64,000 nt of DNA from Frigidibacter mobilis. Its GTDB lineage: Bacteria; Pseudomonadota; Alphaproteobacteria; Rhodobacterales; Rhodobacteraceae. The position numbers were made by a program, and so were the translations under genes. Each line of letters begins with the position of its first letter. Within the stretch, counting starts at the first letter, position 1. This document shows positions 57,603 through 62,702 of the stretch, one piece after another. The DNA lies in the NCBI RefSeq assembly GCF_001620265.1, contig NZ_CP012661.1, positions 2,046,001 to 2,110,000 of the forward strand, in the 5' to 3' direction. The notes beneath the pieces are model-generated. The model was not told where the DNA came from. It saw only the letters and a program-made list of their open reading frames with translations, and did no database searches.

Positions 57603-58439
57603 ATGCGCCACACTCTGCCCATCGCGCCGCAGTTCTACGTGACGGCTCCGCAGGCCTGCCCCTATCTGGAGGCCCGGGCCGAGCGGAAACTGTTCACCGC
57701 CCTGCAGGGCGAGGGCGCGGGCCGGCTGAATGACGCGCTGTCCAAGCAGGGCTTCCGCCGCTCGCAGAACGTGCTCTACCGCCCCTCCTGCGCCGATTGC
57801 TCGGCCTGCATGTCGGCACGGATCCGGGTCGCGGATTTCGTTCCCAGCCGCACGCAGCGCCGGGTGCTGCGCCGCAACGAGGATCTGAAGCGCGAGGCGA
57901 CCAGCCCCTGGGCGACCGAGGACCAGTATACGCTGTTCCGCCGCTATCTGGACAGCCGCCACGCCGATGGCGGCATGGCCGACATGGACATCTTCGAATT
58001 CGCGGCGATGATCGAGGAAACCCCGGTCAAGACCCGCGTGATCGAATACACCACCACCCCCGAGCCCGGCAGCCGCAAGCGGCCGCTGACGGCGGTCTGC
58101 CTGACCGACGTGCTCGATGACGGGCTGAGCATGGTCTACAGCTTCTACGAGCCGGCGCGGATCGAAGACAGCCTTGGCACCTATATCATCCTCGACCATG
58201 TGGAGCTGGCCCGGCAGGTGAGCCTGCCCTATGTCTACCTGGGCTATTGGGTGCCCGGCAGCCGCAAGATGGGCTACAAGGCCAACTTCTCGGCGCTGGA
58301 GATCTACAAGGGCGGCGCCTGGCAGCCGATCGGCGACCCCTGCGCCCATTCCGCCGAGACGCATCCGCTGTCGGTGGACCCGATTGCCGAGCAGGTGGCG
58401 CGGATCTCGTTGCCCGATACCAAGCCCGTGCGCGGATAG
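57603..58439 (+). CDS. bpt: arginyl-/leucyl-tRNA-protein transferase (Bpt/Ate family)
   Basis: This 278-residue enzyme attaches Leu (Bpt) or Arg (Ate) from tRNA to N-terminal acidic residues of proteins for N-end-rule degradation. The N-terminal region has [16 protein letters not shown] with clustered cysteines. The C-terminal GNAT-like part has [27 protein letters not shown] and [18 protein letters not shown]. Length is that of bacterial Bpt. Starting at ATG 57603 keeps the conserved [10 protein letters not shown] start. The stop falls within the 30-bp repeats described separately. Confidence 0.92.
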
Positions 58440-58510
58440 CGCATAGCGGTTCATCCCGTGCGCGGATAGCGCACAGCGGCTTGACCATGCGCGGCTAGCG
58501 CAGGGCGGGT
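58425..58510 (+). repeat. 30-bp imperfect tandem repeats spanning the bpt stop codon
   Basis: Copy 1 is 58425-58454 and copy 2 is 58455-58484, nearly identical. A degenerate third copy is 58485-58510. Each unit has a small hairpin (GTGCGC-GGATA-GCGCAC type). Copy 1 includes the stop codon and copies 2-3 are past it. Confidence 0.8.
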
Positions 58511-58627
58511 TGCCTCCTGCGCCGCCGGGGCTGCCGCAAGAATCCGCCCGGCATCTGCGCCCGGCCGCTTGAATAGCCGGCGCCGCACCCCACTTGGTGA
58601 CGGGACCTTGCTCCGGGAACCCCTTCT

Positions 58628-59551
58628 GTGACCTATCTTTTTCTTGTGATCGGCTTTGCCGGACTGTTCATCGGCGGCGAGCTTCTGGTACGGGGCGCCG
58701 TCGGCATTGCCCGCAAGTTCGGCCTCTCGCCGCTGGTGATCGGGTTGACGGTGGTGGGCTTTGGCACCTCGATGCCGGAACTGCTGGTCTCGGTGCAGGC
58801 GGCGCTTGGCGGCACACCGGCAATTGCGATGGGCAATGTCGTCGGATCGAACATCGCCAATGTCCTGCTGATCCTGGGTGCGGCGGCGGTGATCGCGCCG
58901 GTCGGCATCGCCTTCGGCCCGCTGCGCCGCGACCTTGCGGTGATGCTGGCGGCGACGCTGGCGCTGTGGGGGATGATCCTGGGCGGCTATCTGGGCCGGA
59001 TCGAGGGGCTGATCCTGTTCGGCGGGCTGCTGGCCTTTCTCTGGGCGGCGCTGCGCAGCGGCACGGTCGAGGCCAATGACAAGCTGCTGACGCTGGATCC
59101 GCCGCCGCTGTGGCGGTCCGGGCTGATCGCGGTGGCGGGGCTGGTGGGGCTGCTGATCTCGGCCCGGCTGCTGATCGACAGCGCGACCGAGATTGCCCGC
59201 GCCTTCGGCATTTCCGAGGCGGTGATCGGCCTGACCATCGTTGCCATCGGCACCTCGCTGCCCGAGCTGGCAACCTCGGTGGTGGCGGCGATGCGGCGGC
59301 AGGCGGATATCGCGGTCGGCAATGTGGTCGGGTCCAATATCTTCAACATCCTTGCGATCCTGGGGCTGACGGCGCTGATCGCGCCGATCCCGGTCGATGC
59401 GCGCTTTGCCGGGATCGACATGGCGCTGGCCTTTGCGGCGGCGGCGGGGCTGGCCTTCGCGTCGTGGAAATGGGGGCGGCTGGGGCGGCCGGCGGGGGCG
59501 GCGCTGCTGCTGGTCTATGGCGGATATGTCGCGGCGATGGCGGTGATCTGA
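58628..59551 (+). CDS. calcium/sodium antiporter (CaCA family)
   Basis: This 307-residue exchanger in the inner membrane has ten hydrophobic segments in two inverted halves. The ion-binding alpha repeats are GFGTSMPELLVSVQAAL (half 1) and AIGTSLPELATSVVAAM (half 2). Each is followed by GNVVGSNIANVLLILG or GNVVGSNIFNILAILG. It exports Ca2+ or similar ions in exchange for Na+ or H+. The start is a GTG at 58628. It is transcribed alone between bpt and the ilv operon. Confidence 0.92.
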   Translation: MTYLFLVIGFAGLFIGGELLVRGAVGIARKFGLSPLVIGLTVVGFGTSMPELLVSVQAALGGTPAIAMGNVVGSNIANVLLILGAAAVIAPVGIAFGPLRRDLAVMLAATLALWGMILGGYLGRIEGLILFGGLLAFLWAALRSGTVEANDKLLTLDPPPLWRSGLIAVAGLVGLLISARLLIDSATEIARAFGISEAVIGLTIVAIGTSLPELATSVVAAMRRQADIAVGNVVGSNIFNILAILGLTALIAPIPVDARFAGIDMALAFAAAAGLAFASWKWGRLGRPAGAALLLVYGGYVAAMAVI

Positions 59552-59668
59552 CGCAAGGCGGTGCAGCGCGGCCCCGAATTTCGCCAATATGTCGGCGGGA
59601 GCCGTGCCCGCGCAACAAACAGAATGCCGGATGCGGCATTCACGACACATTATGCGCGATTCTCGGGG

Positions 59669-59697
59669 TTGACGCCCCTTGCCCCCGCTCCTAATGA
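59669..59697 (+). promoter_or_regulatory. candidate promoter of the ilvIH leader
   Basis: TTGACG (59669-59674) and TAATGA (59692-59697) are 17 bp apart and lie 35 bp before the leader-peptide start. The -35 is good. The -10 is weak (TAATGAT). Confidence 0.4.
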
Positions 59698-59731
59698 TAC
59701 CGCCGACGGCAACGCAAAGGGCCCCGCGCAG

Positions 59732-59779
59732 ATGGCACGGATTCTGGTACTCGTAAGGATATGGCGCATGGGCCGGTAA
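59732..59779 (+). CDS. ilv leader peptide (MARILVLVRIWRMGR)
   Basis: This 15-codon frame starts ATG at 59732 and stops TAA at 59777-59779. Residues 4-7 are I-L-V-L, then V8 and I10, so six of 15 codons are branched-chain. It is followed by an antiterminator and a true intrinsic terminator before ilvI. This is the arrangement of a ribosome-controlled attenuator: shortage of charged Ile/Leu/Val tRNA would stall the ribosome on these codons. Confidence 0.8.
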   Translation: MARILVLVRIWRMGR

Positions 59780-59808
59780 CGGTTGACCATAACGGTTCCC
59801 CATGCGCC
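59763..59808 (+). promoter_or_regulatory. antiterminator arms of the ilv attenuator
   Basis: GGCGCATGGG (59763-59772, within the last leader codons) pairs perfectly with CCCATGCGCC (59799-59808). The second arm overlaps the 5' arm of the terminator (59806-59812), so the two structures exclude each other. A ribosome stalled on the early Ile/Leu/Val codons leaves the first arm free; a ribosome reaching the stop codon covers it. Confidence 0.75.
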
Positions 59809-59830
59809 CCCGCCGACACGGGGGCTTTTT
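59806..59830 (+). terminator. intrinsic terminator of the ilv attenuator
   Basis: GCCCCCG (59806-59812) pairs with CGGGGGC (59819-59825) around a 6-nt loop, followed directly by TTTTT. It is 28 bp before the ilvI ATG and 27 bp after the leader stop. Confidence 0.88.
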
Positions 59831-59857
59831 GTTGCGATTTTTGGCAGGAGACGGGCG

Positions 59858-61612
<1,755 letters not shown>

Positions 61613-61622
61613 GGCAGGATGC

Positions 61623-61650
61623 CGACATGAGCCGTCATTGGCTCATGTCG
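61623..61650 (+). promoter_or_regulatory. 11-bp hairpin across the start codons of the gene between ilvI and ilvH
   Basis: CGACATGAGCC (61623-61633) and GGCTCATGTCG (61640-61650) are perfect complements around GTCATT. The left arm contains the ATG at 61627 and the right arm the in-frame ATG at 61645. If formed in the mRNA, it hides both starts. Confidence 0.6.
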
Positions 61651-62154
61651 AGCCAGCGCGAACAGTCGCTGGAATACGTTCTGCTGGGCGCGCTTTGTCA
61701 GGAGATGTGGAAACGGGGCAGTCCGCTGGATATCCTGCGCTCTCACACCGACCAGTCGGGTTACGATCTGGTTCTCGATACGGGGAGCACCCTTCGCTTC
61801 GTGCAACTCAAGTCGAGCTATCTCGGGGCGACAACGGCCAGCCAGGGCGTCAATGTCGCCCTCGCCGGCAAACCCGGCGGGTGCATCATCTGGCTTCGGT
61901 TCGCCGAGGCGGACCTGAGCCTTGACCACTTCTTGTTTTTTGGCGCCGCCGAGCCGGGCGGACCGCTGCCCGACCTTGGCGAACGCGCCGTGAGGCATAC
62001 CAAGGGCAACGCCGAAGGGATAAAGGCAATCCGCCCGGGATTGCGCAGCCTTCCCCGCAACCGCTTTGAGCGGGTCGACAATATTCAGGCTTTGGCCGAC
62101 AGGCTGTTCGGCCGCCACCAGACAACCAACGAGGGATCGTCATGTCAGCACTGA
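61627..62154 (+). CDS. unknown protein with PD-(D/E)XK-like nuclease pattern, inserted between ilvI and ilvH
   Basis: This 175-residue protein is not a branched-chain enzyme. The pattern E16 in a helix (SLEYVLLGALCQEMW), D47 in SGYDLVLDTG, and Q60-x-K62 in RFVQLKSSYLG fits the E-D-QxK core of restriction-endonuclease-like folds; this is pattern recognition, not proof. The C-terminal half (KGNAEGIKAIRPGLRSLPRN, then FERVDNIQALADRLFG) is conserved-looking. A GTG at 61609 overlapping the ilvI stop or the ATG at 61645 are alternative starts. It overlaps the ilvH start by 13 bp, so it is embedded in the operon. A hairpin covers its start. Confidence 0.65.
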   Translation: MSRHWLMSSQREQSLEYVLLGALCQEMWKRGSPLDILRSHTDQSGYDLVLDTGSTLRFVQLKSSYLGATTASQGVNVALAGKPGGCIIWLRFAEADLSLDHFLFFGAAEPGGPLPDLGERAVRHTKGNAEGIKAIRPGLRSLPRNRFERVDNIQALADRLFGRHQTTNEGSSCQH

Positions 62155-62702
62155 ACATCAAGCAAGGCTCGACCAGCCATTCCGCCTATGAACTGCGCGA
62201 TCCCCATGCCGAGATCGTCGAGACGCATACGCTGGCGGTGATGGTCGATAACGAGGCCGGGGTGCTGGCCCGGGTCATCGGCCTGTTCTCGGGGCGCGGC
62301 TACAATATCGACAGCCTCACCGTGGCCGAGGTGGACCACAAGGGCCATCGCAGCCGCATCACCGTGGTGACGCGCGGCACGCCCGGAGTGATCGAGCAGA
62401 TCAAGGCGCAGCTTGGCCGGCTGGTGCCGGTGCATGAGGTGCATGACCTGACGGTCGAGGGCCGGGCGGTGGAGCGGGAACTGGCGCTGTTCAAGGTGGC
62501 CGGCACCGGCGAGCGCCGGGTCGAGGCGCTGCGGCTGGCCGATATCTTCCGCGCCAATGTGGTGGATTCGACGCTGGAAAGCTTCGTGTTCGAGATCACC
62601 GGCACCGTGGAGAAGATCGACGCCTTCGCCGACCTGATGCGGCCGCTGGGGCTGGTCGACGTGGCGCGCACCGGCGTTGCGGCGCTGTCGCGCGGGATCT
62701 GA
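62142..62702 (+). CDS. ilvH: acetolactate synthase small (regulatory) subunit
   Basis: This 186-residue ACT-domain subunit activates IlvI and gives valine feedback. The ACT fold is clear: HTLAVMVDNEAGVLARVIGL, then FSGRGYNIDSLTVAEVDHKG near residue 45. The C-terminal domain (KVAGTGERRVEALRLADIFR, FEITGTVEKIDAFADLMRPL) follows. GAGGGA precedes the ATG at 62142, inside the end of the preceding gene. A GLVDVARTGVAALSRG end is standard. Confidence 0.95.
   Translation: MSALNIKQGSTSHSAYELRDPHAEIVETHTLAVMVDNEAGVLARVIGLFSGRGYNIDSLTVAEVDHKGHRSRITVVTRGTPGVIEQIKAQLGRLVPVHEVHDLTVEGRAVERELALFKVAGTGERRVEALRLADIFRANVVDSTLESFVFEITGTVEKIDAFADLMRPLGLVDVARTGVAALSRGI

What the first reader, a model, noticed from the sequence alone, without database searches (positions are those of the whole stretch)
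59669..59860. Ribosome-controlled attenuator with branched-chain leader peptide in front of ilvI
A 15-residue leader peptide (MARILVLVRIWRMGR) with six Ile/Leu/Val codons ends 27 bp before an intrinsic terminator. Its last codons hold a 10-nt arm (59763-59772) exactly complementary to 59799-59808, which overlaps the terminator's 5' arm. This is the logic of ilv attenuation known from enterobacteria, but here it governs the ilvIH isozyme genes of an alphaproteobacterium. The sequence shows all the parts; the behaviour is inference.
Basis: partly seen in the sequence, partly recalled or inferred. Interest (0 to 1): 0.75.

Follow-up and report, generated by a model that had tools for sequence, protein, structure and literature searches.

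The report
Branched-chain amino acid attenuator before ilvIH
A short leader gene full of isoleucine, leucine and valine codons sits beside a transcription stop signal in front of the genes that make these amino acids, so the cell can probably switch them on when it runs short; this kind of switch is well known, and this one is shared by many relatives and has an unusual folded RNA around the leader's stop codon.

Summary
In detail: leader MARILVLVRIWRMGR (59732-59779), arm 59763-59772 exactly complementary to 59799-59808, intrinsic terminator 59806-59830, ilvI at 59858. The same element stands before ilvI in 94 of 117 upstream regions of relatives (79 non-redundant). The five-codon Ile/Leu/Val block sits at a fixed place and is written in codons rare in ilvI itself (GTA, CTA, CTT, ATT; never TTA/TTG); the terminator covaries. 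Ribosome-mediated attenuation of ilvIH is very likely. It is not new in kind: Caulobacter ilvBN/ilvIH attenuation is in print, and alphaproteobacterial ilv leaders were predicted earlier. (1) The arm pair is the outer stem of a three-way junction; the leader's stop codon lies in the loop of a small inner hairpin, in 70 of 79 a GNRA tetraloop. (2) The supposed antiterminator shares only 2-3 nt with the terminator, and about a dozen divergent members share none in the predicted folds, so mutual exclusion is the weak link. A three-nucleotide switch has mutational support in Corynebacterium ilvBNC. Verdict: new member of a known kind with a testable geometry.

The parts
59669..59697 (+). promoter-like site TTGACG-N17-TAATGA; start of the leader RNA inferred near 59704
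   Evidence: sequence; TTGAC followed by TAAT/TAAG/TAAA at the same 23-nt offset in 63 of 94 common-type regions, at any tested offset in 65 of 94; function inferred
59716..59721 (+). Shine-Dalgarno-like AAAGGG, 10 nt before the leader ATG
   Evidence: sequence; function inferred
59732..59779 (+). leader ORF MARILVLVRIWRMGR*, 15 codons
   Evidence: 15 codons in 68 of 79, 14-16 in all 79 (starts picked by script, ATG and a length near 15 preferred)
59741..59755 (+). regulatory block Ile-Leu-Val-Leu-Val (codons -12 to -8 from the stop)
   Evidence: I/L/V in 95, 99, 99, 95 and 85% of 79 sequences; rare synonymous codons enriched
59763..59772 (+). P1 5' arm GGCGCAUGGG (putative antiterminator, outer stem of a three-way junction)
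59773..59782 (+). P2 mini-hairpin CCG-GUAA-CGG with the stop codon UAA inside the tetraloop
   Evidence: fold; stem of 3 bp or more with the whole stop in its loop in 78 of 79, GNRA tetraloop in 70 of 79; 6 cells changed on both sides and 11 of 237 cells unpaired in A1
59785..59797 (+). P3 hairpin GACC-AUAAC-GGUU (variable in relatives)
   Evidence: fold; not well conserved by eye
59799..59808 (+). P1 3' arm CCCAUGCGCC; its last three nt (59806-59808) are shared with the terminator
59806..59830 (+). intrinsic terminator GCCCCCG/CGGGGGC + U5
   Evidence: sequence; four of seven pairs changed on both sides (8 cells), 99.6% of cells paired in 79 sequences
59858..61612 (+). ilvI, acetolactate synthase large subunit (regulated gene)
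   Evidence: NCBIfam and Pfam
62142..62702 (+). ilvH, acetolactate synthase small subunit
   Evidence: NCBIfam and Pfam

Best explanation
This is a ribosome-mediated transcription attenuator that senses charging of Ile/Leu/Val tRNAs and sets read-through into ilvI(-ilvH). Shown by sequence: leader ORF, fixed Ile/Leu/Val block in rare codons, terminator, P1 arms and the P2 stop-codon hairpin. Inferred: when the ribosome stalls in the block, its front edge stops about at the base of P1, the three-way junction P1/P2/P3 folds and holds the boundary nucleotides 59806-59808, so the last base pairs of the terminator next to the U tract cannot close and RNA polymerase reads on. When the ribosome runs to the stop codon it opens P2 and covers the P1 5' arm, the terminator closes and a leader RNA of about 127 nt is released. 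Competition over a boundary trinucleotide GCC is what mutational analysis supports for Corynebacterium glutamicum ilvBNC.
For: Element in 94 of 117 ilvI upstream regions; covariance model matches 172 of 199 genomes of the family, own included (I did not check that every match stands before ilvI). Block position fixed. Codon choice in the block: GTA 111 of 189 Val codons against 3.4% in 74 ilvI genes (some partial), CTA 28 and CTT 58 of 109 Leu codons against 0.8% and 10.5%, TTA+TTG 0 of 109 against 8.1%, ATT 44 of 75 Ile codons against 11.5%; this agrees with selective-charging theory, in which CUA suits a leu attenuator and UUA/UUG do not (PMC1183508, passages). Terminator covariation above both controls. 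P2 around the stop codon in 78 of 79 with compensatory changes. Three-way junction is the minimum-energy fold of 59763-59808, z -3.45. Whole-arm replacements of P1 with complementarity kept in divergent members. Three-nucleotide precedent with control codons CUU and GUA in C. glutamicum (PMC11857589, passages). Own genome has one model match.
Against: P1 and terminator share only 2 nt (38) or 3 nt (41) in 79 sequences. Enforcing one or the other, the full terminator is favoured by 1.3 kcal/mol on average (sd 0.9); the free minimum-energy fold equals the full-terminator fold in 66 of 79 and the full-P1 fold in 6. In 14 of 20 divergent members the predicted P1 ends 2 or more nt before the terminator (L065 and L203 doubtful), so shared nucleotides are not a general feature. 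In the common type P1 varies only by wobble changes and one double change, its outer pair is absent in 38 of 79, and the count of double changes for P1+P2 (7 cells) is not above the slid control (8 cells at +1), although paired cells are (94.8% against at most 59.4%). The whole leader 59704-59830 does not fold better than shuffles (z -0.13). The 11 Paracoccus loci lack the element, so it is dispensable. No expression data.
Confidence: 0.82

Rival explanations
1. P1 is not an antiterminator by shared bases. It is a bracket: by pairing the leader end with the RNA just before the terminator it brings a ribosome stalled in the Ile/Leu/Val block against RNA polymerase, and the ribosome itself keeps the terminator hairpin from closing. 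A ribosome at the stop codon opens the bracket and the terminator forms.
For: The start of the last Ile/Leu/Val codon lies 7-9 nt before P1 in 14 of 20 divergent members (the folded stretch began 6 nt after that codon's start, so shorter distances could not appear) and 10-11 nt before it in the common type if codon -8 is the last (and window coordinates). P1 ends 0-9 nt before the terminator there, and shared bases are absent in most divergent members. No other pairing partner of the terminator stood out.
Against: Three-nucleotide competition already has mutational support elsewhere. No structural or biochemical evidence. The nearest precedent, ribosome occlusion of a terminator in pyrBI, is recalled.
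Confidence: 0.14
2. The leader is mainly a source of a small RNA and/or peptide with a trans function, as described for the trp leader of Sinorhizobium meliloti, with attenuation secondary.
For: The last four residues RMGR and the P1/P2 sequence are nearly invariant across genera. Trans functions of a leader RNA and peptide are in print for S. meliloti (start of the abstract of PMC7298713 in the listing; passages of PMC10117765).
Against: Conservation of the peptide end is explained by P1 and P2; it changes when the arms change. Not tested.
Confidence: 0.05
3. Chance assembly of a short ORF next to an ordinary terminator of the upstream gene.
For: The upstream gene (58628-59551, calcium/sodium antiporter) lies on the same strand, so a terminator there would be unremarkable.
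Against: A promoter-like site lies between that gene and the leader and recurs in relatives; 94 of 117 conservation, codon bias and covariation.
Confidence: 0.01

Closest known systems
Caulobacter crescentus ilvBN/ilvIH attenuator with a leader CDS (Schrader 2014, PMC4117421, passages; it cites Tarleton 1994, which is not held)
   Same: Alphaproteobacterial acetolactate synthase operon, leader with tandem Ile and Val codons, rho-independent terminator, attenuation.
   Different: Its sequence was not compared here. One attenuator-like leader from another family of the class (L137) has unrelated arms and leader peptide.
Corynebacterium glutamicum ilvBNC attenuator (PMC11857589, passages)
   Same: Antiterminator and terminator adjacent, sharing one GCC trinucleotide complementary to GGC on both sides; control codons CUU and GUA.
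   Different: Actinobacterium; it has an anti-antiterminator hairpin H1; the words 'stop codon' do not occur in its main text, so no stop-codon hairpin is described there in those words.
Escherichia coli ilvGMEDA and ilvBN attenuators (PMC6123439, passages)
   Same: BCAA-rich leader peptide and terminator before a BCAA operon.
   Different: 32-residue leaders there, 15 here; that their alternative stems overlap extensively is recalled, not checked.
Alphaproteobacterial ilvB/ilvIH leaders of Vitreschak 2004 (not held; seen only as cited in PMC1273637 and PMC2573895, passages)
   Same: Attenuators described or predicted for the same genes in the same class.
   Different: Original not read; which genomes and structures it covers is unknown to me.
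uORFC-8-2 cysS attenuator of Rhodobacterales (PMC8632094, passages)
   Same: Ribosome-attenuation type upstream ORF in the same order.
   Different: Cysteine codons, cysS gene.

Membership tests
Ribosome-mediated amino-acid attenuators | Short leader ORF with clustered codons for the pathway's products | tested here: met
   translation itself not shown
Ribosome-mediated amino-acid attenuators | Intrinsic terminator between leader and first gene | tested here: met
Ribosome-mediated amino-acid attenuators | Alternative structure that excludes the terminator | tested here: inconclusive
   P1 conserved but shares only 2-3 nt with the terminator; no shared nt in most divergent members' predicted folds; three-nt precedent
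Ribosome-mediated amino-acid attenuators | Spacing: ribosome at control codons leaves the antiterminator free, ribosome at the stop covers it | tested here: met
   Geometry with a recalled ribosome footprint (about 12 nt ahead of the A-site codon start); a stall at the last block codon would touch the first 2-3 nt of P1
Ribosome-mediated amino-acid attenuators | Downstream genes belong to the pathway | tested here: met
   ilvI and ilvH by NCBIfam
Ribosome-mediated amino-acid attenuators | Starvation-dependent read-through | not testable with these tools
   No expression data
Rfam-described cis-regulatory RNAs (T-box, riboswitches, named leaders) | Match to a curated family | tested here: not met
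   window 58000-62500: two hits up to E 5, best E 1.1, both far below gathering score and elsewhere

The most novel reading that the evidence does not exclude
A family-wide attenuator architecture in which the leader's stop codon is displayed in the loop of an inner hairpin of a branched stem, and in which antitermination needs the stalled ribosome itself, held against RNA polymerase by that stem, rather than an alternative pairing of the terminator; the divergent members with no shared nucleotide would be its clearest form.
Probability: 0.13. Interest if true: 0.65.

Novelty: new member of a known kind. Interest (0 to 1): 0.36.

Why it matters
It turns a single-window guess into a conserved element with a model that can be searched for, shows codon-level selection that agrees with selective tRNA charging theory in a group far from enterobacteria, and exposes a mechanistic gap: how a stem that shares two or three nucleotides, or none, with the terminator controls it. 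One start-codon mutant in a reporter would separate the two explanations.

Tried and rejected
Rfam scan of 58000-62500: nothing relevant. A second, hidden antiterminator: duplex energies of the 5' UTR and of the ORF with either terminator arm against shuffles gave mean z -0.66, 0.03, 0.25 and 0.32 over 78 sequences (UTR-3' arm, UTR-5' arm, ORF-3' arm, ORF-5' arm); the -0.66 is partly what a purine-rich Shine-Dalgarno gives with a U tract, so it was not pursued. The full-leader minimum-energy fold pairs the 5' UTR with the terminator 3' arm, but its z is -0.13, so it was given no weight. P3 as a conserved helix: too variable in the alignment. Class-wide survey: ilvI found in 69 of 96 genomes; the printed upstream regions were cut in the output and I did not count attenuators outside the family; only L120 and L137 from there were folded. 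Of 27 divergent loci given to the script, 6 were dropped because it found no terminator or no Ile/Leu/Val leader (L010, L072, L137, L204, L209, L210); of the 21 left, L026 had no enclosing helix, so distances and gaps are out of 20. L188 to L190 were fetched but not put in the count of 117; L188 was used among the divergent members. Sampling: the 80 named loci are the best 80 of at least 597 candidates, so the 117 are weighted towards near relatives, and several are the same genome fetched twice; the 79 are non-redundant.

Literature: searches, in an open-access library. Searches (Rhodobacteraceae + ilvI + attenuator; stop codon + tetraloop + attenuator + leader peptide) returned no paper. Tarleton 1994 and Vitreschak 2004 are not held.

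Full report
What is there. A promoter-like TTGACG-N17-TAATGA (59669-59697) is followed by a Shine-Dalgarno-like AAAGGG, a 15-codon ORF MARILVLVRIWRMGR* (59732-59779) and an intrinsic terminator (59806-59830) that ends 27 nt before ilvI (59858-61612). NCBIfam names ilvI acetolactate synthase 3 large subunit and the gene at 62142-62702 the small subunit ilvH. The 10-nt arm 59763-59772 is the exact complement of 59799-59808. A scan for the whole architecture found this one place in the window and none in 40 single-strand scans of Markov-1 resamples; the criteria were written after seeing the element.

Conservation. A DNA search with 59590-59960 matched 47 of 61 genomes, own included; that query also holds the start of ilvI, and many of the matches cover only that coding part. 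I then took 117 ilvI upstream regions: 110. Of these 94, own included, carry the same element; 79 remain after removing near duplicates and were aligned as A1. Of the other 23, eleven are the eleven Paracoccus loci, in which no such leader with terminator was found; L022 also lacks one; L090 is cut by the contig end; L010 and L072 are unclear; and eight (L025, L026, L027, L029, L065, L067, L111, L185) have an Ile/Leu/Val leader with unrelated arms, L026 being the least clear. A covariance model built from A1 matches 172 of 199 genomes of the family at E up to 0.01, once in the window's own genome. Of 22 weaker or second matches that I read (L200-L221), 14 stand before an IlvI homologue, three before an efflux transporter (below), and five (L217-L221) before neither; those five look like chance matches to ordinary terminators.

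The leader. It is 15 codons in 68 of 79 and 14-16 in all (the script preferred ATG and a length near 15). Codons -12 to -8 before the stop are Ile, Leu or Val in 95, 99, 99, 95 and 85% of sequences. Their synonymous choice is striking: GTA is 111 of 189 Val codons in the block but 3.4% in 74 ilvI genes (some partial); CTA and CTT are 28 and 58 of 109 Leu codons against 0.8% and 10.5%; TTA and TTG, 8.1% together in ilvI, never occur; ATT is 44 of 75 Ile codons against 11.5%. Low G+C for an unstructured ribosome landing could contribute, but the absence of TTA/TTG argues for tRNA choice. Elf and Ehrenberg's theory (PMC1183508, passages) holds CUA most suitable and UUA/UUG less suitable for a leucine attenuator in E. 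coli. In C. glutamicum ilvBNC the conserved control codons are CUU and GUA (PMC11857589, passages).

The RNA. The leader's stop codon is in the P2 loop. A stem of at least 3 bp with the whole stop codon in its loop can be drawn in 78 of 79 sequences, and a 3-bp stem with a GNRA tetraloop in 70 of 79 (83 of 94). P2 has changes on both sides in 6 cells and is unpaired in 11 of 237 cells of A1. Its outer pair ranks fourth of all column pairs by corrected mutual information and first among pairs that are complementary in over 90% of sequences. The terminator stem is 99.6% paired, with four pairs changed on both sides, above both controls. P1 in the common type varies by wobble changes and one double change. 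For P1+P2 together the double changes (7 cells) exceed the shuffles (0 of 500) but not the slid control at +1 (8 cells), while paired cells do (94.8% against at most 59.4%); the weight for P1 therefore rests on divergent members, in which its arms are wholly replaced with pairing kept. In 21 divergent leaders that the script could parse (of 27 given), the stop codon lies wholly in a hairpin loop of the predicted fold in 9, against 1.56 expected for a random triplet of the same region (binomial P about 9e-6). In the 79 common-type sequences it does so in the predicted fold of the P1 region in 51, against 7.1 expected.

The weak link. P1 and the terminator share 2 nt in 38 and 3 nt in 41 of 79. 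The consensus fold and most single folds form both helices together, P1 giving up its lowest pairs. Enforcing one or the other, the full terminator is favoured by 1.3 kcal/mol on average. In 14 of 20 divergent members the predicted P1 ends 2 or more nt before the terminator, L065 and L203 among them being doubtful; in the other 6 the helices abut. So exclusion by alternative pairing, which defines the textbook mechanism, is not established. The same three-nucleotide arrangement, a boundary GCC contested by two GGC, is what the C. glutamicum authors infer from mutants; in the window these are GCC 59806-59808, GGC 59763-59765 and GGC 59823-59825. [quoted passage not shown] The alternative is that P1 positions the stalled ribosome against RNA polymerase. 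In the divergent members the last Ile/Leu/Val codon starts 7-9 nt before P1 in 14 of 20 (distances under 6 could not appear), which suits either model. An untranslated leader would separate them.

What is known. Caulobacter ilvBN/ilvIH attenuation through a leader CDS is in print (PMC4117421, passages, citing Tarleton 1994). PMC1273637 mentions an alphaproteobacterial ilvB leader peptide described by Vitreschak 2004 (passages), and PMC2573895 lists an ilvIH cis-regulatory element in Sinorhizobium with the same citation (passages). Neither original was held. The finding is thus a new member of a known kind. I did not find the stop-codon hairpin or the minimal overlap across this family described, in an incomplete library.

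Scores. Attenuation of ilvIH by Ile/Leu/Val supply: 0.82. Bracket model: about 0.13-0.14, within that. Interest 0.36: solid and well conserved, useful for testing mechanism, but expected biology.

Noticed in passing
L211 1501-1609, L205 1501-1604, L216 1501-1602 (minus strand): The covariance model also finds related leader-plus-terminator elements in front of an efflux MFS transporter gene (Bcr/CflA family by NCBIfam for L211 and L205; L216 by eye) in three genera (G005, G008, G188), with leader peptides ending in VVVVRRRVVR, MTTRFDIVGRQRMEP and MSFLNVVVSVRCVVR. Of 30 loci of homologous transporters scanned, 2 have it, the same two genomes G005 and G008, so it looks like a rare co-option; signal sensed unknown.
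   Followed up: partly
L075, L077, L079, L084, L085, L087, L088, L091, L107, L108, L110: All 11 Paracoccus loci lack the element before ilvI, while a TTGACC-type promoter-like site can be seen in the sequences read.
   Followed up: partly
window 61609-62154: An ORF of 181 aa with no Pfam match at E up to 1e-5 lies between ilvI and ilvH, overlapping them by 4 and 13 bases.
   Followed up: no
L187, L068, L074, L078: Exceptions to the tetraloop keep a stem around the stop codon: CCTC-TGACC-GAGG in L187 and five-base loops in L068, L074 and L078 (by eye).
   Followed up: partly
L137 (G040, another family of the class): Leader MTTQLVLIRQPLSGRD with arms CAGCCGCTG/CAGCGGCTG and a terminator-like hairpin without a clear T tract before ilvI.
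   Followed up: no
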